A stretch of DNA of 64,000 bases from contig NC_088787.1 in NCBI RefSeq assembly GCF_949628265.1, positions 37,250,844 through 37,314,843 of the forward strand, in the 5' to 3' direction. The position numbers were made by a program, and so were the translations under genes. Each line of letters begins with the position of its first letter. The first letter of the stretch is position 1. This document shows positions 9,001 to 56,887 of this stretch, piece after piece. The notes under the pieces were generated by a model. That model saw nothing but the letters and a program-made list of their open reading frames with translations. It had not been told where the DNA came from and did no database searches. The stretch comes from Cloeon dipterum. Lineage: Eukaryota; Arthropoda; Insecta; Ephemeroptera; Baetidae.

Positions 9001-9364
9001 ATCAAACTTGTAAGGTTTGGTTGGTTCTAATAACGGGAATCGATAGTTTTGTTAAATCATTCTTGGACTTCCATCAATTTTCGAAAGATTGGTCTGTTCT
9101 ATTAACGGGAATCGATAGTTTTGGTCAATCAATTTTAGAATTCCATCAATCTTCGAAATATTATTTGGTCGTATGAATGGAAATCGATAACTTTTGTTAA
9201 AAATTCTCGGAATTCTATCAATCTTCGAAAGATTATTCAGAACTATAAAAGGAAATCGATAGTTTTGGTCAAACATTCTTAAAAGTCCATCAATCTTCGG
9301 AAGATTAATCGATCCTAAGAAAGGGATTCGATAGTTTTGGTCAAATATTCTTGGTATTCCATCA
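1..9364. repeat. 72-bp satellite array with higher-order repeats
   Basis: Tandem units of about 72 bp, each carrying the landmarks ATCGATAGTTTTGGTCAAAC and CCATCAATCTTCGAAAGATT. Adjacent units differ by 10-25 percent, but longer blocks recur almost unchanged: the block at 3398-4192 returns at 4764-5560 (offset 1366-1368, i.e. 19 units) and at 7787-8581 (offset about 3022, i.e. 42 units). This is higher-order repeat structure of the centromeric or pericentromeric kind. Because 72 is divisible by 3 and the unit is poor in stop codons, long spurious ORFs arise on both strands. I see no gene here. Confidence 0.95.
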
Positions 9365-9479
9365 CCCACCAAGAAATTGGACAAGTTTTGACGAGTCAGA
9401 CGGGACGGACCGGTGTGGACCAGTTTTGGACGGTCCAAATCTGGTGCTTAAACTCGTCCTCTTTGTCCTGTCCAATAAT

Positions 9480-21574: not shown

Positions 21575-24323
21575 TTTAATTTAATTTAATTTAATTTAAT
21601 TTAATTTAATTTCCTTTATTTGCATTACACAGCGGTACAAAAATCGAAGCTTCTCCATTTCTGTCCGCGCATTTACAAATGAGTCTTAAACAACAAAATA
21701 ATTAATAACAATAAAGAAGAAACATAGTGTTAACATTTCGTTATGTTTGTGTAACAAGCGAGTGTGTGTGTTTTGCTACATTTGATGCTCTGAAATTGAG
21801 ATATTCATCATAAGTATAAAATTTGTTAGCATAAACAAAATTCTTTAACTGCTTTTCGTATTCGTCTAACTGCTGCTCGCCCCGAATCTGCTCAGGAAGT
21901 TTATTATACAAATTTAGCATGTAAATTTTTGGATTTCGAGAAGCCGCCGCTGACACCTGGGAGGGCACAAAATAATTATCTCTGGAGCGAGTGTTGTATC
22001 CGTGCACCTCCCTAACTAGCTGAAAATAGTGATGATGACGACGCACAAATTTGCAACATTGCAATAGAAATATGGAAAAGACAGGCAACAAATCAAACTT
22101 CTCGAACCATGGTTTCGCTGACTCAAGCGGCACAGGAGAGCGCCAATAACGAACTCCAGCCATCGCCCGAATGAGACGCTTCTGCGCAACAAACACTTCC
22201 TGACGTACTTTGGGGCATGAACCCCAAAAAATCACAGCATACTGGAGATGGGAGTACGCGAAAGCATAGTACACATTAAGCACTTGTTTGAAATCAACAA
22301 TTTTTAAAAGCGAAGTCACCATAAACGTCGCTGAGTGCAGCTTTTCAACGACGTACTCTCCATGACGCTTCCAGGAAAAATCCGCTGTGAAACGGAGACC
22401 TAGAATTTTAACCTCTGCCGCCAACGAAACCTGGAAACCGTTCAAACTCAACTCCTTCAGATTATCTGCTACAAGTCGGGAACCTGGCTTTCTGAATGAA
22501 ATTACCACTGTCTTGTCGACGTTCATCCTTAAGAAATTTTCAGCACAGTAGTCCCGCATCGTTTCCACTGCAACGCCTGCCTTCGGCACCAACTCCTGCG
22601 GACGCGAGTCACAGATCAACAAGCTCGCATCATCCGCGTAGCTCACAAGAAAATCTGCCGTTACACGAACTGCCAAATCAAAAATTGCCAAATCAAACAT
22701 AAGTGGAGACAGAATTCCTCCTTGTGGAGTTCCTCGCGAAACTGGCAAGTAGTCTGAAAAAATTTCACGCTCCCACTTGCCATCTCTTCGCTCAAGCTTG
22801 ACGCACTGGAATCGGTCTGTGAAGGCAGATTGGAGCCAGAGGAGTGGAGACCCTCGCACCCCATGGTGCTCAAAATTTCTCAATATCAATTCGGGTGAAA
22901 CTGTCCCAAATGCATTCGACAAATCAAAGAACATCCCAAGCACCTTTTGATTTTTATCCAAAGCCTCTGCCAAAGATCTCACGTATTCAAACAACGCCGT
23001 CGTAGTACCTTTACCATTTATAAAACCATGCTGCGAAGGCGGAAGCAACTGATTCTCCTGCAAGTAATTCATGAGTCGCATTAGATAACAATTTTCAAGG
23101 ATTTTGGAAAATACAGGCAAATTTGAAATAGGGCGATAATTTTTGGGATTCTTCCTGTCTCCTTTCTTAAAAAGTGGTATTACGACCGCCTTCTTCAGAG
23201 CTAAGGGATACTCGCCCTGTTCAAAAGAAGCATTGATAATTTTAACCAAAGGAGCAGCCACAGCAGGACCAACACGCTTCACCAAAAACATTGGAATACC
23301 ATCGTAGCCTCTGGATCGCTTTGACGGCAGACGTTTAATCCACAGTTCTACTTCAAAAGTACCCACGGGGAGGAGTTGAAATCGTTCTCCCGCAGGCTCC
23401 AAATTCTGAACTGGACGTCCAGTTTGATGTGGTGGTGGCTCAATGAACGCCTCATTCAAAAATTTAGCGATATCCTCAGGATCCGTCAGAATTCCACCAT
23501 TGCCTTGCATTGCCAGAACGTAGCTTTTTTGTCGAATATTACCAATATTAGCGTTTATTACTGACCATGCAGCCCTAGTGCGATTTTCTGACTCCTCAAT
23601 TAAACGACTGTTTTGCTGCTGTAATTCAGAGTGCAAAAGTTTTAAATATTCAAACTTCTTTACCTTCCGAAGATTTCTAAGCTTCTCTTTCAACGCCAAG
23701 TTAGGTGTTCTTCTCATCATATTAGAAAAGTGTCTCAACTCTTTCCTACGATTCTTGGTATCTTGAGATAGATGGACTTTACCTACTTGGTTTGCACGGT
23801 ACAGCTTTTTCTTGAGTGGGAAACACCGCTCGAAACCAATCATGAAAATTGCCAGAAACATATCATACATTACACTTGCAGACTCTGCCGTCTGCAAGAA
23901 ATTCCAGTCCTGCACGCCTAAAAACTCAGCAAAGCTCGCAATATGTTGCTCAGAAAAATTCCGCTCCATTCTAAACCAATCCTGCAACGGCTCGTGAGAG
24001 AGATTCAAACGGCAAAACACACTTTCATGATCCGACAAAAAGTTCTCTTCCGCATAGCAAGTAGAGTCCATATCAACACCATTTGCAAAAATCAAGTCTA
24101 TCGCTGTACCAGAAGTTCTTGCAGAGTTGCAAAACCGCGTCACAAAACCACCGTTCAGAGGAGACAACTGAAATTGCTGCATGACCTTATTCAACTTTTG
24201 TTTTTTGGGGTTATTGGTCAACCAATCCACATTGAAATCGCCACAAACCAAGAAATAATGACACCTATGACGGCGGAAAAAGACAAAAAGATGCCGCAAA
24301 CATTCCGTCAAGTACTCTATAAA
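21575..24323 (-). mobile_element. 5'-truncated non-LTR retrotransposon
   Basis: Minus-strand LINE. Its 3' end is a short 3' UTR with an AATAAA-type signal (CAAATAAAGG), followed by a (TTTAA)n tail visible on the plus strand at about 21573-21611. The body stops abruptly at about 24323 inside the endonuclease domain, so ORF1 and the start of ORF2 are absent: ordinary 5' truncation. Flanking TAAAT at 21571-21575 and 24324-24328 is a likely short target duplication, since the intact satellite reads GTGTAAATACC. Confidence 0.9.
21741..24311 (-). CDS. Non-LTR retrotransposon ORF2, partial endonuclease plus reverse transcriptase
   Basis: 856 codons without a stop. The N-terminus begins inside an APE-type endonuclease (GDFNVDWL near residue 25, a SDHE motif near residue 93); the first part of that domain is lost with the truncation. 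The reverse transcriptase shows KNYRPISNLPVFSKILE, the QHGF block, FFDLSNAFGTV (motif A), GTPQGGILSPLMF and YADDASLL (about residue 556, catalytic Asp pair). Motif A has G where many elements have D in the AFDTV stretch. The C-terminus has a YNTRSRDN-type element and LYNKLPEQIR, seen in Jockey/CR1-like arthropod lineages; clade not fixed. The encoded protein would copy its own RNA at a nicked target. With the 5' part missing this copy should not be autonomous. Confidence 0.9.
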   Translation of the reverse strand: MTECLRHLFVFFRRHRCHYFLVCGDFNVDWLTNNPKKQKLNKVMQQFQLSPLNGGFVTRFCNSARTSGTAIDLIFANGVDMDSTCYAEENFLSDHESVFCRLNLSHEPLQDWFRMERNFSEQHIASFAEFLGVQDWNFLQTAESASVMYDMFLAIFMIGFERCFPLKKKLYRANQVGKVHLSQDTKNRRKELRHFSNMMRRTPNLALKEKLRNLRKVKKFEYLKLLHSELQQQNSRLIEESENRTRAAWSVINANIGNIRQKSYVLAMQGNGGILTDPEDIAKFLNEAFIEPPPHQTGRPVQNLEPAGERFQLLPVGTFEVELWIKRLPSKRSRGYDGIPMFLVKRVGPAVAAPLVKIINASFEQGEYPLALKKAVVIPLFKKGDRKNPKNYRPISNLPVFSKILENCYLMRLMNYLQENQLLPPSQHGFINGKGTTTALFEYVRSLAEALDKNQKVLGMFFDLSNAFGTVSPELILRNFEHHGVRGSPLLWLQSAFTDRFQCVKLERRDGKWEREIFSDYLPVSRGTPQGGILSPLMFDLAIFDLAVRVTADFLVSYADDASLLICDSRPQELVPKAGVAVETMRDYCAENFLRMNVDKTVVISFRKPGSRLVADNLKELSLNGFQVSLAAEVKILGLRFTADFSWKRHGEYVVEKLHSATFMVTSLLKIVDFKQVLNVYYAFAYSHLQYAVIFWGSCPKVRQEVFVAQKRLIRAMAGVRYWRSPVPLESAKPWFEKFDLLPVFSIFLLQCCKFVRRHHHYFQLVREVHGYNTRSRDNYFVPSQVSAAASRNPKIYMLNLYNKLPEQIRGEQQLDEYEKQLKNFVYANKFYTYDEYLNFRASNVAKHTHSLVTQT

Positions 24324-25805
24324 TAAATACCTAATGTTAAATTATAAAATGAAATGTTATATGTTAATACTAAATGTGATATTAAAATATGAATCTGCTT
24401 TTTAAACAAAATGTAATATGTGAATACTAAATAAAACATTTTAATGTGTTTGCTTTTAAATAAAATGTAATATGTAAAAGTACAATGTAACATTATAAAA
24501 TGCTTTTAAACGAAATGGTTTGTGTAAATAATTAATGTTACATTATAAAATGAAATGTTATTTGTAAATACTAAATGCAATGTTTTAATATGTACCTGCT
24601 TTTAAATAATATGTAATATGTAAATGTACAATGTAACATTAGAAAAGACTTTTAAACAAAATGTTATGTGTAAATACTTAATGTTTTATTATAAAATGAA
24701 ATGTTATATGTTAATACTAAATGTGATATTAAAATATGAATCTGCTTTTAAAACAAAATGTAATGTGTGAATACTAAATATAATATTCTAATATGTATTT
24801 GCTATTAAATGAAATGTTATAATAAATGTACAATGTAACATTTTAAAATGCTTTTAAATGAAATGTTATATGTAACCTTTTAAAATGCTTTTAAATGAAA
24901 TGTTATGTGTAAATACTTAATGTTACCTAATAAAATGAAATGTTATATGTGAATATTAAATGTAATGTTATAATATGTACTTGCTTCATAATAAAATGTA
25001 ATATGTTAATGTATAATGTAACATTATAAAATGCTTTTAAATGAAATGTTATGTGTAAATACCTTATGTTACATTATAAAATGAAATGTTATATGTGAAT
25101 ATTAAATGTAATATTCTAATATGTATTTGCTTTTAAATAAAATGTAAAGTATGAATGTACATTGTAATATTATAAAATGCTTTTAAATGAAATGTAATAT
25201 GTAAATGTTCAATGTAACCTTTTAAAATGCTTTTAAATGAAATGTTATATGTAAATACCTTATGTAACATTATAAAATAAAATGTTATATGAGAATACTA
25301 AATATGATTTTATTAATTGAATCTGCTTTTGAAACAAAATGTAAAAAGTAAATACTAAATGTAATATTCTAATATGTATTTGCTATTAAATAAAATGTTA
25401 TAATAAATGTACAATGTAACATTTAAAAATGCTTTTAATTAAAATGTTATATGTAAATAATCAATGTTACCTTTTAAAATGCTTTTAAATGAAGTGTTAT
25501 GTGTAAATACTTTAAGATACCTAATAAAATGAAATGTTATATGTAAATAATAAATGTAATATTCTAATATGTATTTGCTATTAAATAAAATGTAAAAATA
25601 AACGTACAATGTAACATTTTAAAATGCTTTTAAATGAAATGTTATATTTAAATACTAAATGTAATGTGTTCATATGTACTTGCTTTTAAATAAAACGTTA
25701 TATGTAAAATTACAATGTAACATTATAAAATGCTTTAAAATGAAATGTTATATGTAAATACTTAATATAATGTTATAATATGTACATGCTTTAAAATAAA
25801 ACGTA
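24324..25805 (+). repeat. AT-rich satellite, right arm, first segment
   Basis: Same family in the inverted orientation (ATGAAATGTTATATGTTAATAC). It is continuous with 21511-21574 if the LINE is removed, and stops at AACGTA (25800-25805), the left copy of the Polinton target duplication. Confidence 0.92.
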
Positions 25806-26210
25806 AGTAGCTAATAAATACCGTTTGTACCACCACAATCCCATTTGATCCTATGTATAGCAGCCATCTTGAATTAATCAAGGGTGACGACGACCTTCTG
25901 CAGCACCTGACCTTGTGCAGTACCTGACGATGACCCTCCTGCCCATCCTTACCCCTCCCCAACCCTCCCCATCCTTACCCCTCCCCAACCCTCCCCATCC
26001 TTACCCCTCCCCAACCCCCTCCCCAACCTGCCCCATCCTTACCCCTCCCCAACCCTCCCCATCCTTACCCCTCCCCAACCCCCTCCCCAACCTGCCCCAT
26101 CCTTACCCCTCCCCAACCCTCCCCATCCTTACCCCTCCCCAACCCCTCCTTACCCCTCCTCAACCTAACCCTCAAACACACAATTGAAAACTGGGAAATA
26201 AAAAAAGAAA
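25806..26210. repeat. Left Polinton terminal inverted repeat
   Basis: About 400 bp. The outer 155 bp are unique sequence. Inside lie tandem units of about 26 bp (CCCCATCCTTACCCCTCCCC), so the opposite strand carries clustered runs of three to five G. The matching right TIR is at 46938-47313. Confidence 0.93.
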
Positions 26211-26264: not shown

Positions 26265-26753
26265 TTAGTCGAGAAGTTTTGAACATTTTTCCTCCAAGCT
26301 TGCTCTAGAACCATGATGATTGTAACAGCATTCTTTAATTTTCCATATATTATGCTGCAAATAATTGTAATATTTGTATATTTCATCAAAATTTTCCACT
26401 ATCGATTTAAATTCATTCAAAGTTAACGTGATTGGATTAGAATGACTCAAATCATTTTCACGTCGGTAAATATAGTAACAGTCATGTTTTGTATTATAGG
26501 AAAGGTCTACAAAATCACCGATCCGATAATTTCTTTTTTCACCCATGAAATGCAATAATCTATCAGAATTATCAACATATTCTTTGAGATATTTCAAGTC
26601 AATAATACACTTATCTAAACGCTCATGCAATATTAAACAACATACATAAATATGAAGAATTGTTCCATGTCGATCTTCACCAACAATTTCATTAATTCCA
26701 ACCTGAACAACACCGAATGTTTTAGTGAGAAGCATGCTTCCTTTACTATGCAA
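26265..26753 (-). CDS. Hypothetical Polinton protein with PC4-like modules
   Basis: 162 codons; a start at the internal Met (26735) is also possible. Not recognised by name. The protein appears to hold two short modules of beta-strand-rich sequence ending in an amphipathic helix; the second contains NPITLTLNEFKSIVENFDEI, whose pattern of hydrophobic strand, L-T, then helix resembles the C-terminal half of the PC4/p15 single-stranded-DNA-binding fold. The same pattern recurs in the genes at 34527-35445 and 46036-46869. It is the leftmost gene, just inside the TIR, reading outward. Family assignment is inference. Confidence 0.6.
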   Translation of the reverse strand: MHSKGSMLLTKTFGVVQVGINEIVGEDRHGTILHIYVCCLILHERLDKCIIDLKYLKEYVDNSDRLLHFMGEKRNYRIGDFVDLSYNTKHDCYYIYRRENDLSHSNPITLTLNEFKSIVENFDEIYKYYNYLQHNIWKIKECCYNHHGSRASLEEKCSKLLD

Positions 26754-27908: not shown

Positions 27909-30900
27909 TTAACACCTTTTTCTGGCCAGACGCTGACTTCTGCGTCTTTTTTTGCTTGGTGGAGCTATGTGAATTCAATAATTTAAAATACTATGCAAAA
28001 ATTAAACCCAACGAGACTTACCACTCTCATCCTCGGAATCGGACAAGGGAACGTCTGCAGCCTCCCTTTGCACAACAACTTCAATTTGCTCAACCTTCTC
28101 TTCTGACCCCTGTCCATTTTGATCCGTCAACTCTCGTCCTTCACCACCAATCTCGTCCGCCTCAAATCTTTCACCTCTTTCATCCCAGTCACCCACAAAG
28201 CGCTTGGCCAGAGTTTGTTTACGCAATTGTTGGTAAACGCCAAAACCAAAGGCAAGCAAGAACGCGACAGTCAGCAACAGGCAGACACCTATTAAAAATA
28301 ATTAAATTTCCATATTTTTTGATTATCTCTTTAACAAACCAATCAAAATTCCACGCAAGTGTTTGAACTGTTGGTCAATCATTTTGACTGGTGGTGGAGT
28401 GCTCGTCATGTCATTTGAGGACGTCAAAGTCGTACCCCTCAGCGGGCTGTCTGTCGGAGATTGTCCCTGCAACGGCTCTGCAGGTGGTGTGTTAGAAATT
28501 TTATCGTCATTTTTTTCTTTGACATGCACGTTTACAAAATGATCATTTTTTACAAAACTTGTGTTTGCGCGCTCGTCATTTCCGACAAAAAGTTCTGATT
28601 CTGTCATCGGAGACAGTTCCTGCAATGACTCTGTAAGCGGTGGTTTTTCATAATTTTTTGATTCGAAATGCACGTATACAAAATGATCATTTTTTACAAA
28701 ACTAGCGTTTGCGCGCTCGTCATTTCCAACAAAAAGTTCTGATTCTGGTGTCGGAGACAGTTCCCGCAATGGCTCTGTATGCTGTGGTTTTTCATCATTT
28801 TTCGCTTTCACATGCACGTTTATAAAATGTTCTTTTTTTACAAAACTTGTGTTTGCGCGCTCGTCATTTCCGACAAAAAGTTCTGATTCTGTCATCGGAG
28901 ACAGTTCCTGCAATGACTCTGTAAGCGGTGGTTTTTCATAATTTTTTGATTCGAAATGCACGTTTACAAAATGATCATTTTTTTTTACAAAACTAGCGTT
29001 TGCACGATCATCATTTCCGACAAAAAGTTTCGATTCTGTCGTCGGAGACAGTTCCTGCAATGACTCTGAATGCGGTGGTTTTTCATCATTTTTTGATTCG
29101 AAATGTGTGTTTACAAAACTTGCGTTTGCGCGATCATCATTTCCGACAACAAAAATTTCTGATAAGACCGGAGGCCATTGTTCCATCTCAATAATGACGT
29201 CAAATCTTTCAATGTTTTCCAGATCATCGTTTTGTACATGTTTCGTTAGAGTAGAGTTGGTAATGTCAATTTTAGCCAACACCGGTGGCTTTTTAACCAT
29301 CTCAACGTGCATGTCAAACCTTTCAATATTCTGATCGGTTTTCGCATTGACGCTACAGTTTTTGCAAGATATTTCTTTCGTCAGACTACTTTCAACCAGA
29401 TCGCAAGCTACACAATCAGATGATGTGTTAGTTGACACGCAACAACTCGCTACACTAGAGTTTTCTTCGCTGCAATTTTCACAATTTGCTATAATAGCAT
29501 GTCCTTTTACCACTTCTGTCACATTTGGAATTTTGCTTGACGAGTGTGTTGAAAGTGGGGGCGGAACGGTAGCTTTCATAGAAGTGACAGGTTCGGTACT
29601 TCTCTCTAAGGGGCGCGATGTTGTTTCCATAGACAGTGTAGAGAATGTAGTCGTTTCCAACGCGAGTGTTTCTTCCCAAACGGTTGACGAAGAATCGGTT
29701 ATTGTCTCGGTAGACATTTCCAGAATGAGCAAATCGGTTGTATTTGGTTCTCCTTTAGCCGCGTTTGTCACATTTGGAATTTTGGTTGACGAGTGTGTTG
29801 AAAGTGGGGGCGGAACGATAGCTTTCATAGAAGTGATAGGTTCGGTGCTTCTCTCTAAGGGGTGCGGTGTTGTTTCCGTAAACAACGTAGTGAATGTAGT
29901 CGTTTCCAACGCGAGTGTTTCTTCCCAAACGATTGACGAAGAATCGGTTATTGTCTCGGTAGACATTTCCAGAATGGGGAAATCGGTTGTATTGTGTTTT
30001 TCCATAGAATCTATTTCCGCGAGGTCAGTGGTGGTGGTCGAATTTTCAACCTTTGTAGGGGTCGTTTCCGAGAGGATAGTGGCGATAGTTGAGTTTTCCA
30101 TAATCATTTCTGTGAAGTTTGAGTTATTTTCCAAAGACGGTATGGAAGCAAACATATCGTTTTCATGCGATGACTCACGGATATTGTACAGCGGCAAGCA
30201 GTCGCGACACACACACAATAGCACGTTGCACGCATAGCAGGGACAATCTAAAAATAAATTATCAGTTTTCAAAATAAATGTTAGTTGAAAAAATAAATAC
30301 CGGTCGTGATGTTTCTTGTTTGGGTGCTTGAATTGCGACAGCCTACAGCTTGCTGACCGCCAGATTCCAAATCTATATTAACATTTTTTAGACACCATCT
30401 AAAATTTATTCAAAATCTTTACCATTTTCTGTCTTGAAAATGTTGGTGTACACAACCACTCTGCTGTCAAAGCTGTGGATGCGTTCTTTGACCATCAGTC
30501 GACTCTTTCCCTTCCACACGTGAAACTTGTTCAAACGAACATCATTCTACATTCATTTTTTTTAATTAGTATTTTTTCAATTAAAAATAAAAAAAACAAT
30601 AGCATTACTTCAAACCATATCAAGCCGGTAGGACTCTCAACTCCCACAGCCGCGATTGTATCGGTTGCCTCGAAAAATGCAACACCATCAGCGTCAGCAT
30701 TCAAAGCAGTATTTGGCATGAACGGATACCACACAAAGAGAGGGGCTGTGGAAGATGATTAAACATTAGCAACGTTCAATATTAAAAATTTCATCGTTCA
30801 TAAATATTTTGATTCCCTCTTTTTTATTTGCATTAAAAAATTTCATTAATTATTTATAAGCATTTTTGATATTTTCTAAAATTTGATTATTAATTAATAA

Positions 30901-32796
30901 GCAAATACATGTTCATAAATTTAGCATTCCAAATATTTATATCCAAATATTAATATAAATCAATTAAAATTTTGGATATTTGAAAATTACATTTTTATTT
31001 TTAAATATTATTTTAAGATAATTAAACAAACAATTTTAAAAGTGATAAAAAAAGTGTAAACTTATCAATTGCATTTTTAAAATATCAAATTTATTGAACG
31101 AATACTTTTCATCAAATTTAATACAATGAAAAAATATTTCAGTCGCTTCATTATAATTAATCTCCATTGGATAAATAATTTAGATCATTAAATATAGTTA
31201 AAAATATTTTAAAAACTTATTTGCTAAATTTTTGATCCATATAAAATATTTTAATTGGAGTTTTCAAACATTTTTTTAATTAAAATATTTTTTAGATAAT
31301 TAAATTGAACCATCAATTTTTAAAATTGACGAAAATATTAACCACGTAAATTTTATCAAGTCTTATCAATTAAATTTTGAAAAATATCAAATTTATTGAA
31401 CAAATAATTTTTCATCATATTTAATAGAATGAAAAAAATATTTCAGTCGCTTTATAATAATCTCCATTGGTTAAAATTTTTAGATAATTTAATATAGCTC
31501 AAATTAATTTTGCAAAATATTTGACAATGTAAAATATTTTAATTGGATTTGTGAAACATTTTTTAATTATTTTAGATCATTAAATTAAACCATAAAAATT
31601 TTAAAATTGACCAAAATATTAACCGTGTAAATTTAATCATTTATCTCCTTAAATTTTAAAATAATAAATTTACTGATCAAATAATATTTTTCATAATATT
31701 TGAATTTTAATAAAATAAAAAATTTTCAGCCACTTCATTAAAATTAATCTTCATTGGTTAAATTTTTAGATCATTAATTGTTACCTCAAACAATTTCTAA
31801 ACTTATTTGATAAATTTTTGACCATGTAAAATATTTTAAAAATTTTCAATGTTTGAAGTAACATTTTTATTTTAAATTGTTGAACCAAATTTGAAGAGTG
31901 CAATTAATTTGAAAAATATTTTCATACATCTGGATATATTTAATGAGCATAAAATAATATTTTAGAAAATTGAGTAAACTCAAAAATTTGCAAATTATTT
32001 TAGTCATGTAAAATATTTTTCTTCCATGTATTCAATAAATTATCAAGTTTCAAATCAATGAGATAAATTATTAAATTTTTAATCAATTGATTTGTAAATG
32101 TATCACTACATGTAGTATCTTAAATATTTTTACCATCAGAAACTCTCATTCCGCTGAATCTGACACGATCATCATCTTGGCGGATGCGCATCTTGGACGT
32201 TTCACCTCCCAAAACACTCCAATAGCCGGAACTTTTCATCAGCCAAATCGTGGTCTATGGGAATTTACATTAATAATACAATTGAAAAAAACCAAAAAAA
32301 CTTACATCCTGTCCAAAGTGCATTGTCTGTCTACCAACTTTCAACCACGACTCTTGTGTAGCTGCTTTCATCATCAACATTTCAGACGTCCATCCCAGCT
32401 CAACATCGTCCTTGTAGAGACCCATTTCTAAACAACCAAAAAACACAACATGAAAATGAACTTTCTTATGACTGAAAACTTACCGTTTGACAGGCGCGAA
32501 TTTGAGTAGGCTTTCAGATCGACATCCGTGTGTAAGATGCTGCTCAAACGCCAGTTTGTCAATGCGATCTAAGCAAGAAAAATTATCAATTTTTTAAAAA
32601 AAATTAAATGTAGTAAACAAACCTGTCCAATTGCGGTGCTCCTAGCAGCAACGGATGATGGCACAAAGTCCAGTTTTTCATCCCCATTGGCAACACAACG
32701 TGTCATCCCTTGAGTTTTGTAAAACTCAAGCGATGACACCATCCCAAAACCAGTCAAAACGCACAAAAAGATCATCATCATCTTCAAAATCGCCAT
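27909..32796 (-). CDS. Ten-exon gene for a mucin-like type I membrane glycoprotein
   Basis: Exons, in transcript order: 32623-32796, 32484-32568, 32306-32427, 32134-32254, 30609-30745, 30423-30546, 30301-30372, 28340-30247, 28022-28288, 27909-27964. Every intron is GT-AG and all phases close, giving about 1021 codons. Exon 1 encodes a signal peptide (MAILKMMMIFLCVLTGFGMV). Exons 2-7 encode a compact ectodomain of about 250 residues that I do not recognise. Exon 8 opens with a Cys-rich stretch, then a long Ser/Thr-rich, sequon-rich stalk with two repeats of about 83 residues (29520-29960) and at least four of 48-49 residues (28590-29150). Exons 8/9 share one hydrophobic span (LLLTVAFLLAFGFGV), followed by an acidic cytoplasmic tail and a short basic end. 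An attachment or envelope-like surface protein is the natural guess, but function is inference. It lies wholly inside the Polinton. Confidence 0.85.
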
Positions 32797-34526: not shown

Positions 34527-34859
34527 TTAATTTTTATCGGTTATACTCAATACATAAAGATCCAAGATTGGTAACATTAATTGAATACAATCAAAGACAT
34601 GTTGAGAAATATAAAATACACCGCTACTATTTGAAATTTTAACAATGTCCCAATGTTTTTTAAATGTCTCGTCGAAGATGGTAAAGAATCCGTCATTTTC
34701 TACCCAGTGGCGAAATTGAGAGAACGGTAGTCTTACTTTTTGATGGAAATTACTAAATCCGTAGAGAAGAACATGTGGGGTTTTTGTTTCTTCATCCAAG
34801 TAAATGCTGATTTCTCGCTGCTCAGTAATGGGGAAAGTTCTCAGCGAATCCATTTTCAT
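34527..34859 (-). CDS. Hypothetical Polinton protein, PC4-like modules (downstream ORF)
   Basis: 110 codons overlapping the end of the 207-codon ORF upstream by 38 bp in another frame. It contains two strand-and-helix modules (QKVRLPFSQFRHWVEN and FYISQHVFDCIQLMLPI) of the kind seen in its neighbour. The overlap contains a C4 run (plus strand GGGG near 34830), so the two ORFs may be one gene broken by a +1 shift rather than two genes. Function unknown; nucleic-acid binding is inference from the PC4-like pattern. Confidence 0.6.
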   Translation of the reverse strand: MKMDSLRTFPITEQREISIYLDEETKTPHVLLYGFSNFHQKVRLPFSQFRHWVENDGFFTIFDETFKKHWDIVKISNSSGVFYISQHVFDCIQLMLPILDLYVLSITDKN

Positions 34860-35484: not shown

Positions 35485-35913
35485 TTATTTGATTTCCTCC
35501 AGCTTTCGGGTCACGGTCACCTCATTAGTCGTATGATTGCGTAATAAATCCTTGTAGAACAAGGTCACATCTTTACCTTGCTTGATGTGATGTAAAAATA
35601 ATATTGAAATCTTTCCGCATGACACACTTTTTTCGCTCTGCTGAGGATACTTGTTACTTATTATTTTTTGTGCATATTTGTTGATAAAATCAACTAATTG
35701 CTTAACCGTGGGAGGCATACCTAAACTGTCATTGTAATATGCAATAATTAATTCTCCGTGTTTTTGTAAAACTAGACCGACAAAATGACCTATACGCTTT
35801 CGTGAGATATTAATTACGTAATAAGCTGGAAAAGTCGGAATCTCTCGTTCCAGATCTTTGAGAGATAAAAATTTGCCAAATGGTATCAATTTTTGAACCT
35901 CGTCTGAATTCAT
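35485..35913 (-). CDS. PRO: Adenovirus-type cysteine protease
   Basis: 142 codons. The layout is that of the adenain/Ulp1-like maturation protease of adenoviruses and Polintons: His43 in GHFVGL, Asn61/Asp62 in YYNDSLG, Gln92 in PQQSEKSVSCG and nucleophile Cys99, with the Gln-to-Cys spacing of 7 seen in the family. It should cleave capsid and core precursors during particle maturation. Its ATG overlaps the TGA of the major capsid ORF in a 4-bp ATGA, and it sits three genes from a basic protein with repeated candidate cleavage motifs. All catalytic residues are present. Confidence 0.9.
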   Translation of the reverse strand: MNSDEVQKLIPFGKFLSLKDLEREIPTFPAYYVINISRKRIGHFVGLVLQKHGELIIAYYNDSLGMPPTVKQLVDFINKYAQKIISNKYPQQSEKSVSCGKISILFLHHIKQGKDVTLFYKDLLRNHTTNEVTVTRKLEEIK

Positions 35914-37105
35914 AGGACTCTAATTTCTTTATTACTTAGATGTAATTCTGCGTCATCGTACTGCATGAGTATAACGAGTGTTATTAATTTATTTGTAGCC
36001 TCAGCAAATTGCAAATCTATCCCAATAATACCAGACGAATTAAATTGGTTCATCGACACATCCTTGACTAAATTTTGTGCAAGAAAGAAACCGTCTCTTT
36101 TATACTCTTCTAAACTCAAACCGATGCCAACTCCTCGACTGTCTAATCCAAGCTGAGAAATGGTATAATCGTACAACTCGGTTACATCTCCGGTTGCGAA
36201 ATTAAATGGTAAATTATAATTTGGAAGTTGAATGTTGTTATAGGTAAACTTAAAATTAATTAGACCATGAGGGAGAAACCTATAACCTGATTTTTCATAA
36301 TTACCTAGATAAGCGTCACTTTCAACAAAACACATTAAAAGCTTTTGCGGAGGAACTCCGATAATAAAATTTGGATTGTTATATGTTGTAGATTCGATGG
36401 GAATATTAATTGTTCTTCCGAGCACTTTGTTGTTATTTTGTAGACTGAATTATTTAATATCTCTTGCATTTTATTTCTAACAGAACTTTCTACTTTAACA
36501 TGTCTCGCCAGTAGTTCACACGACGTTATATGCACCTGTGGGTTGTCTGTTCTGTTTGTTAGAATAAAAAACTTGTCCGGATTTTGCTCGAGAACGATAT
36601 TGAACTCGAAATTTCCAGGTAGCACTTTTTCTTGTCGAAACAAGGAGTGTTGGAGCTGACCAATATAACAAACCTCTTTACCATCGACCGCATTTTCACC
36701 TCTTTTTATGAGAGCTGAGCTACTCTTATCCCCCCTTTTTCCTGGCGGATCGTAATCGTAACCAGTGCTTAAAATTGTTCTTTTGAATTCTGAATCGTTA
36801 GAGAGCGTGAACGCGAAAAGCGATATGAAATGATTTAGATGAGTTGCGGATATTAAAACTCCGTTAATATATAAATCAAGTCTTGAAAAAAGACTGGATA
36901 AGGCTAAATTTTCGTAAGACAAGTATTCTGAGGCGGCAGGTTTGATACCTGTTCCATCCTCGGATAAGATCTTAAATTTTACTAGTAATTTCACAGAAGT
37001 TAAATCGAGCGAAAAATTGTCTTGTTTAGGAATTGAAAACAATATTTTACCTCCTCTAGTGATCGGGTTAAGAGGACGGTATTTTTGCATGACAGATTCT
37101 TCCAT
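35910..37105 (-). pseudogene. MCP: Major capsid protein (hexon-like double jelly roll), split by a frame break
   Basis: Two overlapping ORFs. The upstream one (37105 to 36335) carries the N-terminal jelly roll with LSSLFSRLDLYINGVLIS, the typical Polinton hexon word in which a short loop precedes an N-G turn. The downstream one (open from 36449, ending 35910) continues with the second domain (GVPPQKLLMCFVESDAYLG and a proline-rich P-Y-N-L-P-F-N-F stretch). The reading frame must shift by -1 between 36449 and 36423. No X-XXY-YYZ heptamer lies in that interval, so a one-base loss (or assembly error) is likelier than programmed frameshifting. Total coding length, about 400 codons, fits the family. 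It forms the icosahedral shell with the penton protein. Confidence 0.85.
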
Positions 37106-39610: not shown

Positions 39611-39919
39611 TTAAACGACATCTCTTAACTTTCTTTTCAATAAGTTAAATACTTTGTCGTCTAGCTTTAATATCAGCTCCTTTCTCTTGGCACATGTAAC
39701 CCCTTTTCTGAGCAAACACCTACAGATTTCTGTGTTGTTTCTTATCAAGCTGATTTCCGACTGAGCCATATCTATATTTCCCAACCTAATATTATACACC
39801 ACCTCGCAAAGAGCTCTGATTAAATCCTTGTCCAAGTGCGAAATTAACTCACGCCTCTCCTCGGACGGCATATTCAAGATTCTATTCAACGTTCTCATTA
39901 ATTTCGATTTCTTTCCCAT
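39611..39919 (-). CDS. Small conserved Polinton protein
   Basis: 102 codons. The pattern of an acidic/helical N-terminus, ALCEVVYNIRLGNIDMAQSE, then a basic segment (CAKRKELILKLDD) recalls a small helical protein repeatedly found near capsid and ATPase genes in metazoan Polintons. No catalytic motif. It overlaps the 3' end of the ATPase ORF by 38 bp in a different frame, which supports co-transcription. Role unknown. Confidence 0.65.
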   Translation of the reverse strand: MGKKSKLMRTLNRILNMPSEERRELISHLDKDLIRALCEVVYNIRLGNIDMAQSEISLIRNNTEICRCLLRKGVTCAKRKELILKLDDKVFNLLKRKLRDVV

Positions 39920-40616
39920 GGTATTTTTCTGCTGGGACGAAATAAGTAGGATGTTCAGACGTTATGTTTGTGCTAAATCTTAAATTTTCTGGACAATCGT
40001 TCGAGAGGTTTATCGCTAAATAGCCGTGCTTTGTTCTGGTAGCATGTTTATATATGCTCTGAACGAGCTTTGTATCGTATGGAAGCTGACGTGCTAAGGT
40101 GTTAAAGCTCAAGGAATCCCTATGATTGACGAATGTAATGATATTTTTGGAATTTAATGAAACAATTCTTAGCTTAGAATTTAGGAATAAATATTGTAGC
40201 AAGAATATAACGGTGATATTAAGATGGTGTGACTCTCTGACAAACAAAGAAGCTGCCAGATTGATGCCTTTGTCATGCGAGTCGTCAATCACTATGATAC
40301 GATTCAAATTGTCATCTGGTAAACTTTCAGGGAGACCTTGAATGAATTTTATGTGTGGAAAATCGTCAAAACATCTATTATATATATGATAGTAATATAG
40401 GATTTCTTTGATTTCCTTGTCAAAATATCTATTAGGGTTTGACAAAAGCGATAGCGTTAGAAATGTTTTGCCACAACCAGAATTTCCGTTGATAAGCATC
40501 GTTGTAGGATGGGTATATTTATAAAACATTTTTGCACGAGTAACGACTCGCATATGAGGGTTTTCTTGCACGATCACTTCTTTTATATTCGTGTATGTGG
40601 TTTTTTGCATGATCAC
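39882..40616 (-). CDS. ATP: FtsK/HerA-type genome-packaging ATPase
   Basis: 244 codons. Walker A is GNSGCGKT (residues 44-51) and Walker B is RIIVIDD (about 106-112). The size and the short stretch before the P-loop match the packaging ATPases of Polintons, adeno-like and PRD1-lineage viruses, which drive DNA into the capsid. A later Gln/Asn-rich strand (VIFLLQYLFLNS) is in the place of sensor motifs. It is the first gene of the minus-strand block and is divergent from the BIR/RING gene. The start may be the first Met or Met4, because the N-terminal codons lie in a short repeat. Confidence 0.9.
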   Translation of the reverse strand: MIMQKTTYTNIKEVIVQENPHMRVVTRAKMFYKYTHPTTMLINGNSGCGKTFLTLSLLSNPNRYFDKEIKEILYYYHIYNRCFDDFPHIKFIQGLPESLPDDNLNRIIVIDDSHDKGINLAASLFVRESHHLNITVIFLLQYLFLNSKLRIVSLNSKNIITFVNHRDSLSFNTLARQLPYDTKLVQSIYKHATRTKHGYLAINLSNDCPENLRFSTNITSEHPTYFVPAEKYHGKEIEINENVE

Positions 40617-40675: not shown

Positions 40676-42400
40676 TTGAATTTTCAGGTAAACCTGCCTG
40701 CTGCGATTGTTTTGTTAAATCTCGCACTACATGTCAAGAGAGAAGTTGGTGCATTTCTCGCACTAGTAATCGAAGGATTTCGCTCCATTGGCGTAAATGA
40801 AAATGCGGCCAGAGCAATTTACTCTGCAGGCGGAGTGCCGTATGTGACTCCTGACGGTGTGCCAGGGGTTTTTTTCCCCTGCTGCAATATATTCCTGTCG
40901 TGTTTTGGTATGAATTTTTTTTACCTTGATTCTTTTTTCTAATATCATTTTATAGACCCGCAGAGAATTTGCCAGTTTCACTGGGGGCTTAGTCCGCAGT
41001 GTCCATTCATGAATGCTCGATTTCATTTCCGACGTGAGATGAACTTGAACGATGTGATGACGGAGAGCTTGTTCGACTGGGAAGTCGTCATTCCGAGAGT
41101 CAATTTGATTTTCAAATCAACGTGCTATGTTTGTCTCGTCAAAAGCGCCGATGTCATCGTGCAATGCGGACATGCAGCCTGCCTGCTTTGTTTCCTGAGA
41201 GCTCTTACTAAAGCTTGCATGATGTGTAGATTCGAATACAAGTTTTGCTACCTCTTGCCTGGCAGCTTGGCGGAATGTAAATTTTTTTGCTTAAAATTTT
41301 TAATTTTTTGCAATAATTTTTTAACACAGTGCCGGAGCCTGTGGAAGAAAATGTTGACAATACACCTCTGGTTCTGGACACTGATCATATGGGCTTTCGA
41401 CGTGATCGCTTAGAGGTTGGTGCGCGGTTGATGATACACTTGCGTGATATTTCCGTAAATCCTCCACCGCAACATGTTACCGTTGAACAGATCATGGAAG
41501 GTATTTTACAACAATAAAAAATAAATGAAATCTAATTAATCTTTTTACAGTGCGTCGGAAAATATTCCACAATAATCCTATACCGAACGCAAGCTTACAC
41601 GAGGATTTTGGATGTTTGAACATGGCTCGATACACCCCTGCCGTCATTACAAAAAATACCAATGCAATATTAAACTCGGCTCGGGTCAAGGCTGGAGACA
41701 AATTTCATCACATAAATATGCAGGCTTATGCAAAGATTTTTCAAGAACCTCGCACCGTCGCCTTGACTGATTACGAGGAATTCATGTACAGAGTAACATT
41801 CAAAAACCAATTCAACCCAAACCGCCGCCAACTAATGCAGCAGAGTGCGAAAATGGCATTCAACAATTACTTGCGCTACTTGGATGTGAACGATGAGGTG
41901 ATTGAGATCGAAGATGGAGAAATTTTGGATGATGAACCGATGGTAAGATTTTTCATATTTTTTTCGCATGGTTTTCATTATGTATTAGGGAGCTCAAGAT
42001 GCGAATGATGAACCTTCCGCTGCTGTTGATCTACGTTGTGAGCCTTCAAGCAGTGGAGCGTGTCCGCCTTCGGACCGTGAAGAGCAGGTATGGAGCAAAT
42101 GGATTTATATTGCAGAAAATTAACATATTTTTTTATGTCAAGGTTTGTGAGGCTGGTCCTAGCGGTTTGCAAAAGGAGGTTGGAGCTAGTGATTTGCAAA
42201 AGGTGAAATTCGGGTTATTTTCTCTTTTTAAAAGTTGATGATAATTTTTTTCTAGCTCGTCAAACCAGACAGCACTTGCTTATCTGACTCACCTTGCATG
42301 GTATTCAACAATTTATTCCATTTAGCAATGACTAATTATGTGTGTCTAGGACGAATCAGATGGCATGTGCTCAACCGATGACAGTGGAGATGAGGTATAA
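40676..42400 (+). CDS. Eight-exon gene: BIR-like segment plus RING finger
   Basis: Exons: 40676-40907, 40956-41276, 41330-41500, 41551-41942, 41989-42087, 42143-42202, 42256-42300, 42350-42400. All introns are GT-AG, 45-70 bp, and every phase closes, giving 456 codons. An AG at 40687 could instead be an acceptor for an unseen first exon. Across the first junction lies a BIR-like pattern: Cys, 16 residues, His (QFHWGLSPQC), six residues, Cys; but the first Cys of the usual C-x2-C pair is Phe. Exon 2 encodes a C3HC4 RING (CYVC, then VQCGHAACLLC, then CMMC). The later exons encode an acidic tail with no known domain. Known BIR-RING proteins are IAPs, ubiquitin ligases that restrain cell death; such a role here is inference. 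It ends 34 bp before the polymerase gene. Confidence 0.8.
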
Positions 42401-42434: not shown

Positions 42435-45400
42435 ATGCAGAACACGAGCGATCTACCCGCGCAAGAGGTTTTGATCCGTCGGCGAAATCTAAATTACGAA
42501 CTCAATTCGGATAATATTTTTGTTGGTAAATCAATATTTGGCGGAAATTTCACCGACTACCTTATTCATAATGACGATAAACATTTATCTATTGAAATAT
42601 TTTTATCTAATAACAGGGAAAGGGTTTTAAAAATATTAAAATCAGAGTTGTTTTTGCTTAAATCTTTAAAGTTTAATTTGTTTATGGTGTGTGTTTATAC
42701 TAATCCATTAGATGTAACTAAAGATGCAAATTTCAAATCTTCTAATTCAGCTCTCTTCCACGAATCTGATATTATTGAAAATGTTGAAAAGCACTTTGCA
42801 AAGCTGGTTGAAGAGAGTGAATCTTATGCTTTTAAGGGTAGTGGGTTTTCTTTTACTCGAGTTAAATGTTTAGAGATTAGAGTTAGCAAGTATAGATTTA
42901 TACCTGGTAGTTCATTTTTACCATTACCAAAAAAATTCTTTTAAAAAAAGCAGTGATCAATCTGAAATGTAAAACAAATTGTGACAAGTGTTTTAAACAC
43001 TGTATTCTGGCCAAATTTTACAATACAAAAAATGGATGTGTAAACAGAACAGCCGAGGCTGGATTAGAGCATTTGTTTAATTTTGATATTGAATTTCCTG
43101 TCACAATAAAAGAAGTTAAATATTTCCTGCGATTAAATTCACATGTTTCAATTAATATTTTTACTTTGGATCGAGAATTTCATGTATTTCCTGTAAAAAC
43201 TTCGTTTGAAAAAAAGCAATATCATTTTGACCTCTTGTATTTGACAAAAGGTGACAATGCGCACTGGGTCTTAATTTCAAATCTTAGCCGTCTTGTTTCG
43301 AGCATGTTAAATAAAACAATGCATAAGGTGTATATTTGTGTAAGATGTTTAATGAATTTTGATAAGCAGTACAAATTATCTGATCACGAAATAAGATGTC
43401 CAACAGGAAAGTACACCCGCATAAAAATGCCAAAAAAAGGTTCTGTTTTCAAATTTGAAAAATTTAGCGCTGCCGTTCAAAGTCCGTTTCTTTTAGCATT
43501 TGACATGGAAGCCCTACTCGTTTCGGTGAGTACAGCCCATCGAGAACCTGCAACTAGTTCATCCACAGTCACAGAAATCCACGTCCCTTTCGCTTTTGGG
43601 GCATATCTACATTCAATTTATGAACAGGAAGAAGTTCCGGATGTGCCACTCGGCTATTATCATTACATCTCAGATGAACGACGGCTTGAAAATGCGATAA
43701 TAAGTTATTTTGATCGAATTACGGCCTCGATTAAAAAGGTGTTTCAGAGAGAGTTCCCAATCAGTATCAGCGAACAACAACAGATTGCATTTGATGAAGC
43801 GACTAATTGTTATTTTTGCGGTGTTGCTTTTGATCAAATTAATGTAAAATGCAGAGAGCATGATCACTGTCTGTCACATCACAATCTTCGTAACGGAGCT
43901 TGCTGCTCGAAATGTAATTTGAATATGAAAAGAATTCATTTTCTACCCTGCTTTATTCATAACAGTGCTAATTATGACTCTCATTTCTTAGTTTTAATGT
44001 TTTTGCGAAGAAATTTCAGAGTGAATGTAATTCCGTCGACACGTGAAAGATACATTTCATTCTCCATTACTATGAATGGTGTTGAAGTGAGATTTTTAGA
44101 TATGTTTAAATTTTTCTCCGATTCCCTTGATTCGCTGGCTTCGGCGCTTCCTGATCAATCGTTCATAATAACAAAGAATAATTTTCCTGTCGAAGTTCAT
44201 AAGTATGTTACGGGGAAAGGAATTTTTCCTTACAAGTTTATGGATGATATGGAAAAATTAAACCATCCCGATCTACCTGATATCAGTCATTTCTATAACG
44301 ATTTGAGCATGGAGGATTTAACACCTGAAGATTATGAGCTTGCAAAGACTCATTGGAAAGCATTTAAGTGTGCATCAATGCGTGATTACTGCGCTGTGTA
44401 TCTTAAAAAGGATGTTTTGATTATGTTGGATGTTCTTTTGTTTTTTCGATCGATCATCTTTGATAAATTCAAAATTGATTTGTGTCATTTTTACACGATT
44501 AGTCATTTATCAATCAATTTAATGTTGAAATTAACAAAGATTGAAATAGAATTAATATATGATGACGAAATTTTTGATTTTGTTGAATCTGGGATATCAG
44601 GAGGGATGTGTCAAATAGGTCGTAGATATTTAAAATCGTCAGAAACTGAGAAAATAGGATATTTTGATTGTACGGCGCTGTATTCGTTCTGCATGTTAAA
44701 ATTCCCTTTACCCTATGCCGAATATAAATTCATTAGCCCCGAAAATTTTGATTGGGAAAATACTGATGCAATGGGTGAAACTGGTTATGTTCTTGAATTT
44801 GATTGTTTTTACCCCAAAGCAGTTCATGACTACCTAAGCTGTCTTCCTCCATTTCCAGTACACAAAATTCCAAACGATATTTCAAAATTTCCCAAATTGA
44901 TTTTGGATTTGCTCCCCAAATACAAGTGCAAAGCATCTCTTGCATTGGTTCAGCAGGCTAAACGGTTAGGTGTAAAAATTACACAGGTTTACCGCATAAT
45001 TTCTTTCAAGCAGCGACCGTTTATGAAACCGTACGTCGAGATCATGCAGCAATTGCGCGGGGCTGCAAAAAGTGAGTGTGAAAAAAATCTTTATAAATTG
45101 TTCACAAACTCAGTGTTTGGCAGGACAATAGAAAACGTTCGTAAACATATTCAAATTAAATTAGTCAATAATGAACATGCTCTTTTAAAACTAATTCGCA
45201 AACCAACATTTATTGAAAGAGTAATTATCGGTGATGGAATGGCTATTGTCGAGTTGCAAAAAGGGGTGACTGTGATGGATCGACCTATTATTGTAGGTTG
45301 TAATATTCTATATTGGTCTAAATACTACATGTACCATTTCTATTATGATGTGTTGAAAAACCAATTTCGTAATCGAATGTCTCTCTTAATGATCGACACT

Positions 45401-45877
45401 GATGGTGTTATTGTAGCTTTTAAAACAATCAATTTTATAGAAGAACTTAAACAGATATCACAACATTTCGATTTCAGTTCACTTCCAAAATCTCATCCGC
45501 TGTATTCTGCAGAAAATTCAAAAGTATATGGTAAGTTTAAGGATGAATTAAATGGAGCATTGATTACTGAGTTTGTTGCACCTAGATCTAAAATGTACTC
45601 CTTTATTTGTGACAATGGGGAATATAAAAAAGCTAAAGGAATTAAAAAATGTGCGATTAAAAACGATCTTTGTCATACAGATTTTGTTAACTGCGTTCTA
45701 AACAATGATAGAAAATATGTTACTTTTTGTAATATCAGTTCTGTTAATCATAAGTTGTATACTTACAGAATATGTAAATTAGCTTTAGATCCGCATGATG
45801 ATAAACGTGTTATATTACCAGACCATTCTACATTACCATATGGTCATTATAAATTAACAGAGCGTGTCTATGAGTGA
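42435..45877 (+). CDS. POLB: Protein-primed DNA polymerase B, interrupted by a -1 shift at A7
   Basis: The first ORF (42435-42944) is the usual Polinton N-terminal region; the second (open before 42953, to 45877) carries the enzyme. Visible features: a C2H2-like finger (CVRCLMNF near 43340), ExoI FDME (43498), an HNH/endonuclease VII-like Cys/His cluster (43808-43925), ExoII with NYDSHF (about 43974), ExoIII YLKKDVL (about 44400), motif A DCTALYS (about 44665), motif B with TNSVFG (about 45108) and motif C IDTDG (about 45393). Motif C has Gly where most relatives have Ser. The join lies at A-AAA-AAA (42929-42935), aligned to the incoming frame as a slippery heptamer. So this is either programmed -1 frameshifting or a homopolymer indel. 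The enzyme replicates the element from a terminal protein. Confidence 0.92.
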
Positions 45878-46937: not shown

Positions 46938-47313
46938 CTTTCTTTTTATTTCCCTTTATTTATTTCTCAGTTTTTAATTGTGTGTTTGAGAATCTGGATG
47001 GGGAGGGTTATGGAGGGGTAGGTTGGGGAGGGGTAAGGATGGGGGTTGGGGAGGGGTTGGGGAGGGTTGGGGAGGGGTAAGGATGGGGCAGGTTGGGGAG
47101 GGGGTTGGGGAGGGGTAAGGATGGGGAGGGTTGGGGAGGGGTAAGGATGGGGAGGGTTGGGGAGGGGTAAGGATGGGCAGGAGGGTCATCGTCAGGTACT
47201 GCACAAGGTCAGGTGCTGCAGAAGGTCGTCGTCACCCTTGATTAATTCAAGATGGCTGCTATACATAGGATCAAATGGGATTGTGGTGGTACAAACGGTA
47301 TTTATTAGCTACT
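46938..47313. repeat. Right Polinton terminal inverted repeat
   Basis: Inverse complement of the left TIR. It differs mainly in the number and order of GGGGAGGGGTAAGGAT units; the outer 155 bp match the left end very closely. Confidence 0.93.
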
Positions 47314-47319
47314 AACGTA

Positions 47320-56856: not shown

Positions 56857-56887
<31 letters not shown>

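What the first reader, a model, noticed from the sequence alone, without database searches (positions are those of the whole stretch)
27909..32796. A ten-exon mucin-like membrane glycoprotein gene carried inside a Polinton
Ten exons with GT-AG introns and fully consistent phases give about 1021 codons: signal peptide, unrecognised ectodomain, Ser/Thr/sequon-rich repeat stalk, one transmembrane span, acidic tail. Core Polinton genes are usually few-exon and encode a naked capsid. A spliced surface glycoprotein suggests an enveloped stage, cell-to-cell transfer, or a captured host gene. Gene structure is seen in the sequence; the envelope role is inference.
Basis: partly seen in the sequence, partly recalled or inferred. 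Interest (0 to 1): 0.9.

Follow-up and report, generated by a model that had tools for sequence, protein, structure and literature searches.

The report
Spliced surface glycoprotein in mayfly Polintons
A virus-like mobile element in a mayfly genome carries a ten-exon gene for a mucin-like membrane protein, and sister elements keep the same gene in the same place with the same intron positions, which suggests it helps the element spread between cells, though no envelope or particle has been shown.

Summary
A 21,508-bp Polinton lies at 25806-47313, with AG-starting inverted repeats and a 6-bp target duplication (AACGTA). Inside it, a minus-strand ten-exon gene encodes 1021 residues, identical to an uncharacterized public protein of the mayfly Cloeon dipterum.

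It is not a one-off capture. All 8 loci found for its upstream Polinton neighbour have a homologue 0.8-2.1 kb downstream on the same strand. Three divergent copies (27-31% identical to the window) share its ectodomain intron positions and phases as far as seen, and a CxCxxC-x4-CxCxxC motif at the foot of the stalk. dN/dS over exons 1-3 is 0.34 against a relative at 66-79% identity. One further homologue stands apart from any recognised Polinton gene.

I read it as a conserved, spliced attachment or surface glycoprotein of a Polinton lineage, unlike the intronless genes reported for vertebrate Mavericks. An envelope or fusogen role is untested: no family match passes a cut-off, and fold prediction failed. 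In this window copy the polymerase and the capsid-like gene each have a frame break.

The parts
25800..25805 (.). left target-site duplication AACGTA
25806..26128 (+). left terminal inverted repeat, starts AGTAGC, with C-rich tandem repeats inside
26265..26735 (-). o26265, 156-aa gene next to the TIR; outer neighbour of the glycoprotein gene in sister elements too
27909..32796 (-). whole ten-exon glycoprotein gene, 1021 codons
32623..32796 (-). exon 1: signal peptide (about residues 1-22), LEF start of ectodomain, conserved Cys34
32484..32568 (-). exon 2, ectodomain
32306..32427 (-). exon 3, ectodomain
32134..32254 (-). exon 4, ectodomain
30746..32133 (-). intron 4, 1388 bp, 17% GC; about 600 bp in L026, 436 in L055, under 90 in L024 and L028
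30609..30745 (-). exon 5, ectodomain
30423..30546 (-). exon 6, ectodomain
30301..30372 (-). exon 7, conserved GC.N motif (Cys266)
28340..30247 (-). exon 8: CxCxxC-x4-CxCxxC motif, then Ser/Thr/sequon-rich repeat stalk
30191..30245 (-). conserved cysteine motif at start of exon 8
29517..29993 (-). 249-bp tandem duplication in the stalk, 93% alike
28509..29118 (-). 144-bp (48-aa) stalk repeats, 4.2 copies
28022..28288 (-). exon 9: rest of the membrane span (residues 912-930 run over the exon 8/9 junction) and most of the cytoplasmic tail
27909..27964 (-). exon 10: basic C-terminal run and stop
34527..34859 (-). o34527, 110-aa inner neighbour; 8 of 8 loci found are followed by a glycoprotein homologue
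35485..35913 (-). protease-like ORF (assigned by place and recalled motif; Pfam RickCE_cat only at 0.0043, under cut-off)
35910..37105 (-). capsid-like gene (assigned by place, recalled) in two overlapping ORFs: a frame break in this copy; one open frame in L022, L026 and L028
37782..38774 (-). integrase (rve, 1.1e-5, below Pfam's cut-off)
39882..40610 (-). P-loop ATPase (weak matches only)
42435..45877 (+). type B DNA polymerase in two ORFs (frame break in this copy)
46996..47313 (-). right terminal inverted repeat
47314..47319 (.). right target-site duplication AACGTA

Best explanation
A conserved gene of a mayfly Polinton lineage encodes a type I membrane glycoprotein. It has a signal peptide, an ectodomain of about 250 residues in seven exons, a cysteine-rich collar, a long mucin-like stalk, one membrane span and a mixed-charge tail. 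Shown: gene structure, place inside TIR and TSD, shared place and shared intron sites in sister Polintons, protein-level constraint on the ectodomain. Inferred: the element's transcript is spliced in the nucleus, the protein goes through the ER to the surface of the producing cell, and the stalk holds the membrane-distal domain out so that it binds a partner on another cell. It would then act as an attachment or spread glycoprotein, either on the cell or on a membrane-wrapped capsid. The repeat stalk and the strongly diverged ectodomain fit a protein facing host receptors or defences. I hold the first part (conserved spliced Polinton gene) at about 0.95 and the attachment role at about 0.45.
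For: Identical to the public NCBI model. Neighbour gene o34527: 8 of 8 loci found have a glycoprotein homologue 0.8-2.1 kb downstream on the same strand. Junctions, read by eye: same position and phase in L024 and L028 at 7 of 7 ectodomain junctions, and in L026 at the 6 donors seen. Invariant residues in each of exons 1-8 and an invariant CxCxxC-x4-CxCxxC motif in 5 of 5 (exon 7 of L026 not identified). dN/dS 0.34 over 114 codons of exons 1-3 against L049, and 0.45 over exons 1-9 against L029, where exon 8 is aligned through repeats. Signal peptide, single span, sequon excess. Two of the four sister elements examined have one long open polymerase frame (1190 and 1162 aa) and open integrase, protease and capsid-like matches (L021/L022, L025/L026), so the lineage was recently intact.
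Against: No family match passes a cut-off. Weak ones lie in the stalk or tail: Pfam Baculo_Ac102 0.023 (15.6 bits against 27), two PHROGs of unknown function at 0.002 and 0.0054, and Trypan_PARP 0.0027 in the L024 tail. No PDB sequence match. Fold prediction unusable (mean pLDDT 35.9). No transcript, particle or envelope was seen. One relic element with the same TIR shows no match in the 15,513 of 17,312 bases examined, though it also lacks most core genes. Sister elements L023/L024 and L027/L028 show breaks or losses in core genes, and PolB and the capsid-like gene are frame-broken in this very copy. Two stalk-repeat tests show little or no constraint. A homologue apart from any recognised Polinton gene (L055) allows a host function.
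Confidence: 0.5

Rival explanations
1. A host cell-surface receptor or immune protein captured long ago as intron-bearing DNA and kept by the lineage as a decoy or immune modulator, not as an entry protein.
For: Ten exons, while the element's other genes read as frames without introns; GC3 of the ectodomain exons 0.50-0.56 in five loci against 0.24-0.37 for 10 of 11 other genes measured in the window element; a homologue L055 at C2:10.73 Mb with the same exon layout and no match to any other gene of this Polinton in its 9.9 kb, and no PolB, ATPase, o34527 or o26265 hit nearby in the genome lists.
Against: No host protein family recognised. L055 is 41% identical to the L024 Polinton copy and 31-32% to the L026 and window copies, so it falls among the Polinton copies rather than outside them; it has two apparent GC donor sites and an interrupted stalk, which fits a relic. 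Over the whole window CDS GC3 is only 0.43, and the contrast vanishes in the L026 element, whose protease and integrase are at 0.49-0.50.
Confidence: 0.27
2. A membrane fusion protein of a new class, as the analogue of the nematode Maverick fusogen.
For: Surface glycoprotein in a Polinton; a putative fusogen is reported in nematode Mavericks (PMC10680173, passage).
Against: No stretch suited to a fusion loop stands out in residues 23-276 (highest listed 19-residue mean 0.92) and that part has only two cysteines; no match to Pfam or PDB fusogens by sequence.
Confidence: 0.12
3. A passenger: a host gene that hitch-hikes in the element with no role in its spread.
For: One relic with the same TIR, and four 18.8-kb elements that share o26265, gave no match to the gene.
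Against: 8 of 8 synteny, and conserved introns and residues over copies 27-31% identical to the window gene; constraint.
Confidence: 0.08
4. A gene-prediction artefact, chance splicing of open frames.
For: Internal repeats lengthen open frames.
Against: Identical public model, conserved junctions in other loci, 0 of 20000 shuffles open.
Confidence: 0.01

Closest known systems
Nematode Maverick with a putative fusogen (Widen; seen only as a passage of a meeting report, PMC10680173)
   Same: A Polinton/Maverick that adds a membrane-acting protein to polymerase, integrase and capsid genes.
   Different: That protein is described as structurally similar to viral fusogens; here no match to a fusogen was found, and a long mucin-like stalk and a cysteine collar are present.
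Adintoviruses with candidate envelope glycoproteins, e.g. Adinto14876 (preprint PMC11071296, passage)
   Same: Animal polinton-like elements with a candidate envelope glycoprotein.
   Different: The passage gives no sequence or exon data, so relation could not be tested.
Vertebrate Mavericks (PMC8097293, passages)
   Same: Terminal inverted repeats, a 6-bp feature at the ends, conserved gene set.
   Different: No introns were seen in genes of their intact elements; here one gene keeps its introns across sister elements.
Gypsy-type element with a Baculo_F-like frame at 52-58 kb of this window
   Same: A mobile element with a membrane glycoprotein gene.
   Different: Its frame matches the Baculovirus F family (3.7e-11); the Polinton protein does not.
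Mucin-like viral attachment glycoproteins such as those of some herpesviruses (recalled)
   Same: Layout: small distal domain, Ser/Thr-rich stalk, one span.
   Different: No sequence relation found; resemblance is in layout only.

Membership tests
Polinton/Maverick (the element) | Terminal inverted repeats starting AG and 6-bp target duplication | tested here: met
   AGTAGC... at both ends, AACGTA on both sides, 21,508 bp
Polinton/Maverick (the element) | Protein-primed type B DNA polymerase | tested here: met
   PF03175 1.1e-33; 58% to a Neocloeon triangulifer protein over residues 390-988; frame-broken in this copy
Polinton/Maverick (the element) | Retrovirus-type integrase | tested here: inconclusive
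   rve 1.1e-5 but 26.0 bits, under the 32.6 cut-off; 67-71% homologues in L022 and L026
Polinton/Maverick (the element) | Packaging ATPase and adenovirus-type protease | tested here: inconclusive
   Only weak family matches; conserved order in sister elements
Polinton/Maverick (the element) | Double jelly-roll major capsid | tested here: inconclusive
   Conserved 401-aa frame in sisters, no Pfam hit, model unusable (mean pLDDT 29.2)
Core gene set of vertebrate-type Mavericks (the glycoprotein gene as a member) | Gene without introns | tested here: not met
   The glycoprotein gene has nine introns; it is not filed as one of that core set
gB-like (class III) or other known fusogen | Sequence match to the family | tested here: not met
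gB-like (class III) or other known fusogen | Fusogen fold | tested here: inconclusive
   single-sequence model, mean pLDDT 35.9
Mucin-like type I membrane glycoprotein | Signal peptide, one span, Ser/Thr-rich stalk with sequons | tested here: met
   (sequence level only)
Mucin-like type I membrane glycoprotein | Glycosylation itself | not testable with these tools
   needs expressed protein

The most novel reading that the evidence does not exclude
Mayfly Polintons are a lineage of membrane-wrapped or cell-to-cell spreading viruses whose spread depends on a new family of attachment glycoproteins. Its gene keeps its introns through Polinton DNA replication, so the surface protein can be made only where nuclear splicing works, and the lone copy L055 is that protein taken over by the host (or its host source).
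Probability: 0.33. Interest if true: 0.85.

Novelty: new variant of a known kind. Interest (0 to 1): 0.72.

Why it matters
Whether animal Polintons are viruses that leave the cell, and how, is open. A surface glycoprotein kept at one place in all 8 sister loci found, with constraint on its ectodomain, is genomic evidence that membrane exposure matters to this lineage and gives a testable protein. A multi-intron gene conserved as a Polinton component departs from the intronless genes reported for vertebrate Mavericks and shows that these elements can carry and keep spliced genes, the kind of cargo capacity that gene transfer by Mavericks needs.

Tried and rejected
Homology of the ectodomain: a 304-aa piece (none of 721 candidates) and residues 1-310 of the whole protein (only the gene itself among 1498 candidates). 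Both need shared exact 5-residue words and miss relatives at 25-30%, as the later in-genome finds show. Viral contigs: one scan with the glycoprotein and four with the polymerase or its relatives, no relative. Phage records with the polymerase: none. Bacterial genome contigs with the glycoprotein: none. Rfam on 25-48 kb: none.

Recent host capture: rejected because of synteny and shared introns. Paralogy of o26265, o34527, o34822, o46036 among themselves: no support. Artefact: rejected. Stalk duplications: the 249-bp pair shows no constraint (dN/dS 1.29) and the 48-aa repeats range from 0.16 to 1.07, so constraint is claimed for the ectodomain only.

Fold of the glycoprotein and of the capsid-like protein: both unusable; no fold search was run. 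A fragment alignment meant as input for a better fold was misaligned and dropped. L030-L033 gave no match to any gene; their ATPases lie on the other side of the polymerase, outside what I fetched, so they are left out of every count. L034 gave nothing of note. The distant Polintons with 32-33% ATPases (8 rows) were not tested for the gene. Of six near-lineage ATPase loci, five are among the 8; the sixth (C5:1043168, with stops) was not fetched and no glycoprotein hit lies within 18 kb of it. A search for the capsid-like gene did not complete and was given up. Papers: ten searches, judged by their listings, showed no paper on this gene; the Widen study itself was not listed. PMC13269885 was looked through for terms only and gave nothing used; PMC6327564 was seen only in a listing.
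Full report
Observation. The gene was read from the minus strand of 27909-32796: nine GT-AG introns, phases consistent, 1021 codons. A database search returned one protein, P0122, named 'uncharacterized protein LOC135937757 [Cloeon dipterum]', identical over all 1021 residues. Exons 1-7 stay open in 0 of 20000 shuffles. The two strongest hydropathy peaks mark a signal peptide and a span (residues 912-930). Residues 311-560 are 34% Ser+Thr; sequons in residues 301-880 are 18 against a shuffle mean of 9.4 (8 of 3000 shuffles reach it). The 90-residue tail holds 18 K/R and 20 D/E and ends in a basic run. Exons 1-7 have 46.5% GC and the introns 15-29%.

Setting. Inverted repeats start at 25806 and end at 47313 and are flanked by AACGTA on both sides, so the element is 21,508 bp and the gene lies inside it. 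The flanks are AT-rich tandem repeats. The element has a type B polymerase (PF03175, 1.1e-33), an rve integrase (1.1e-5, under Pfam's cut-off), a P-loop ATPase (weak) and further frames. The polymerase is closest to a Neocloeon triangulifer protein (58% over the searched part); both species are baetid mayflies. In this copy the polymerase and the capsid-like gene each have a frame break.

The gene in other Polintons. The held genome G000 (190 Mb, 10 contigs; the window is C2:37250844-37314843) was searched. tblastn of stretches near other polymerases and the TIR match found the gene beside the same neighbours in L022, L024 and L028, and a near copy in L029; L026 was read by eye and confirmed at 3.5e-8 with an L055 query. 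A genome-wide search with P0122 gave 32 exon matches; two searches with L055 pieces gave 7 and 13 rows. These lists score only the best candidates, so counts are lower bounds. Eleven loci reach E 1e-4 or better in at least one search: C2 37.28 (window), 36.62, 36.98, 36.24, 36.93, 36.16 and 36.49 Mb; C5 0.34, 1.08, 1.11 and 1.13 Mb. A twelfth, L055 at C2 10.73 Mb, has 7.7e-4 with P0122 in the genome search and 8e-12 by tblastn on the fetched stretch. Three more (C2 36.50 and 36.47, C5 1.06 Mb) are weak. The inner neighbour o34527 has 8 loci (9 rows), and all 8 have one of these homologues on the same strand, 0.8-2.1 kb downstream to the first matched base. Of the 12 gene loci, 8 thus have o34527; the other 4 are the decayed near copy at C2 36.62, two whose wider flanks were not fetched (36.98, 36.16) and L055.

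Exon conservation. Read exon by exon without joining, L024 and L028 have all seven ectodomain junctions at the positions and phases of the window gene, and L026 the six donors seen (read by eye). Intron 4 is long in the window (1388 bp) and in L026 (about 600) and short in L024 and L028. Across window, L024, L028, L026 and L055, identities summed over exons are 27-41%. Invariant residues occur in each of exons 1-8 (exon 7 of L026 was not identified), and exon 8 opens with CxCxxC-x4-CxCxxC in 5 of 5. L024, L026 and L028 also show a hydrophobic span after an S/T/P-rich stretch (frames, read by eye). dN/dS is 0.34 for 114 codons of exons 1-3 against L049 (C2 36.98 Mb) and 0.45 over exons 1-9 against L029, where exon 8 is aligned through repeats. 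L029 itself is decaying: a lost acceptor, a changed donor and a stop in one exon. L022 and L028 differ at 7 sites in matched codons, and also near the end of exon 8, yet lie on different contigs, which fits recent movement or duplication.

Exceptions. The element at C1:36141818-36159129 shares the TIR but shows no match in the 15,513 of 17,312 bases examined; it also lacks most core genes. Four 18.8-kb elements with o26265 at both ends appear in none of the glycoprotein lists. L055 (C2:10725000-10734900) holds exons 1-8 and a likely span, with no match to another gene of this Polinton in its 9.9 kb and no PolB, ATPase, o34527 or o26265 hit nearby. Two of its donors look like GC and its stalk is interrupted, so it may be a relic, a domesticated copy or a host gene. 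Core genes are broken or partly lost in sister elements L023/L024 and L027/L028 too.

Origin. GC3 of the ectodomain exons is 0.50-0.56 in all five loci, though 0.43 over the whole window CDS. In the window, 10 of 11 other genes measured are at 0.24-0.37 and one Ala-rich gene at 0.53. In sisters, ten core-gene stretches range from 0.31 to 0.50. So the gene may once have been foreign to the element, but long ago: its divergence between elements exceeds that of their core genes (identities of 27-31% here against 60-80% for most core matches). Intron-bearing capture would imply capture as DNA (inference).

Function. No family match passes a cut-off and no PDB sequence matches; the weak Pfam and PHROG matches of the window protein lie in the stalk, and those of relatives are scattered. 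The single-sequence model has mean pLDDT 35.9, so neither fusogen nor host fold can be claimed. From layout, constraint and synteny I favour an attachment or surface-spread glycoprotein (about 0.45), with immune decoy or modulator next.

Literature. Vertebrate Mavericks: no introns observed in genes of intact elements (PMC8097293, passages). Nematode Mavericks code for a putative fusogen and carry cargo genes (PMC10680173, one passage). Candidate envelope glycoprotein in an adintovirus (PMC11071296, passage). In the main text of the C. dipterum genome paper the terms Polinton and Maverick do not occur (PMC7250882, term search). Ten searches, judged by their listings, showed no paper on this gene (listed in Tried and rejected).

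On re-reading the calls I mended the bases examined in the C1 relic, the E-value standing of L055, the GC3 claim (ectodomain exons, not the whole gene), the cysteine and hydropathy figures for the ectodomain, the weak family matches, and the state of core genes in sister elements.

Noticed in passing
window 1-9400: Satellite with a 72-bp unit (about 125 registered 300-nt copies at 72-bp spacing); the multiple-of-three length keeps long open frames (up to 355 aa).
   Followed up: no
window 52757-57806, + strand: Gypsy-type element: RT, RNase H and integrase zinc-binding domains, weak gag and protease matches, and a frame matching Baculo_F at 3.7e-11.
   Followed up: partly
window 21741-24341, - strand: Non-LTR retrotransposon frame with endonuclease and RT matches beside AT-rich repeats.
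   Followed up: no
G000 C1:11594574-11613398, C3:25219607-25238434, C5:10263549-10282378, C3:22791258-22810008: Four alike elements of about 18.8 kb with an o26265 homologue (49%) at both ends in opposite orientation; absent from the PolB-family, ATPase and glycoprotein hit lists.
   Followed up: no
L055 (C2:10725000-10734900): Lone homologue of the glycoprotein gene apart from any recognised Polinton gene.
   Followed up: partly
window 32700-32739: A 40-nt near-palindrome (90%) lies in exon 1 over the LEFYKTQ codons.
   Followed up: no
G000 contigs C2 (34.7-37.3 Mb of 37.5) and C5 (0.3-1.1 Mb): Many of the polymerase and glycoprotein hits cluster towards contig ends.
   Followed up: no
window 41009-41413, + strand: Small frame with weak RING-finger matches (0.0038) in the Polinton, with homologues beside the polymerase in L021, L023, L025 and L027.
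   Followed up: no
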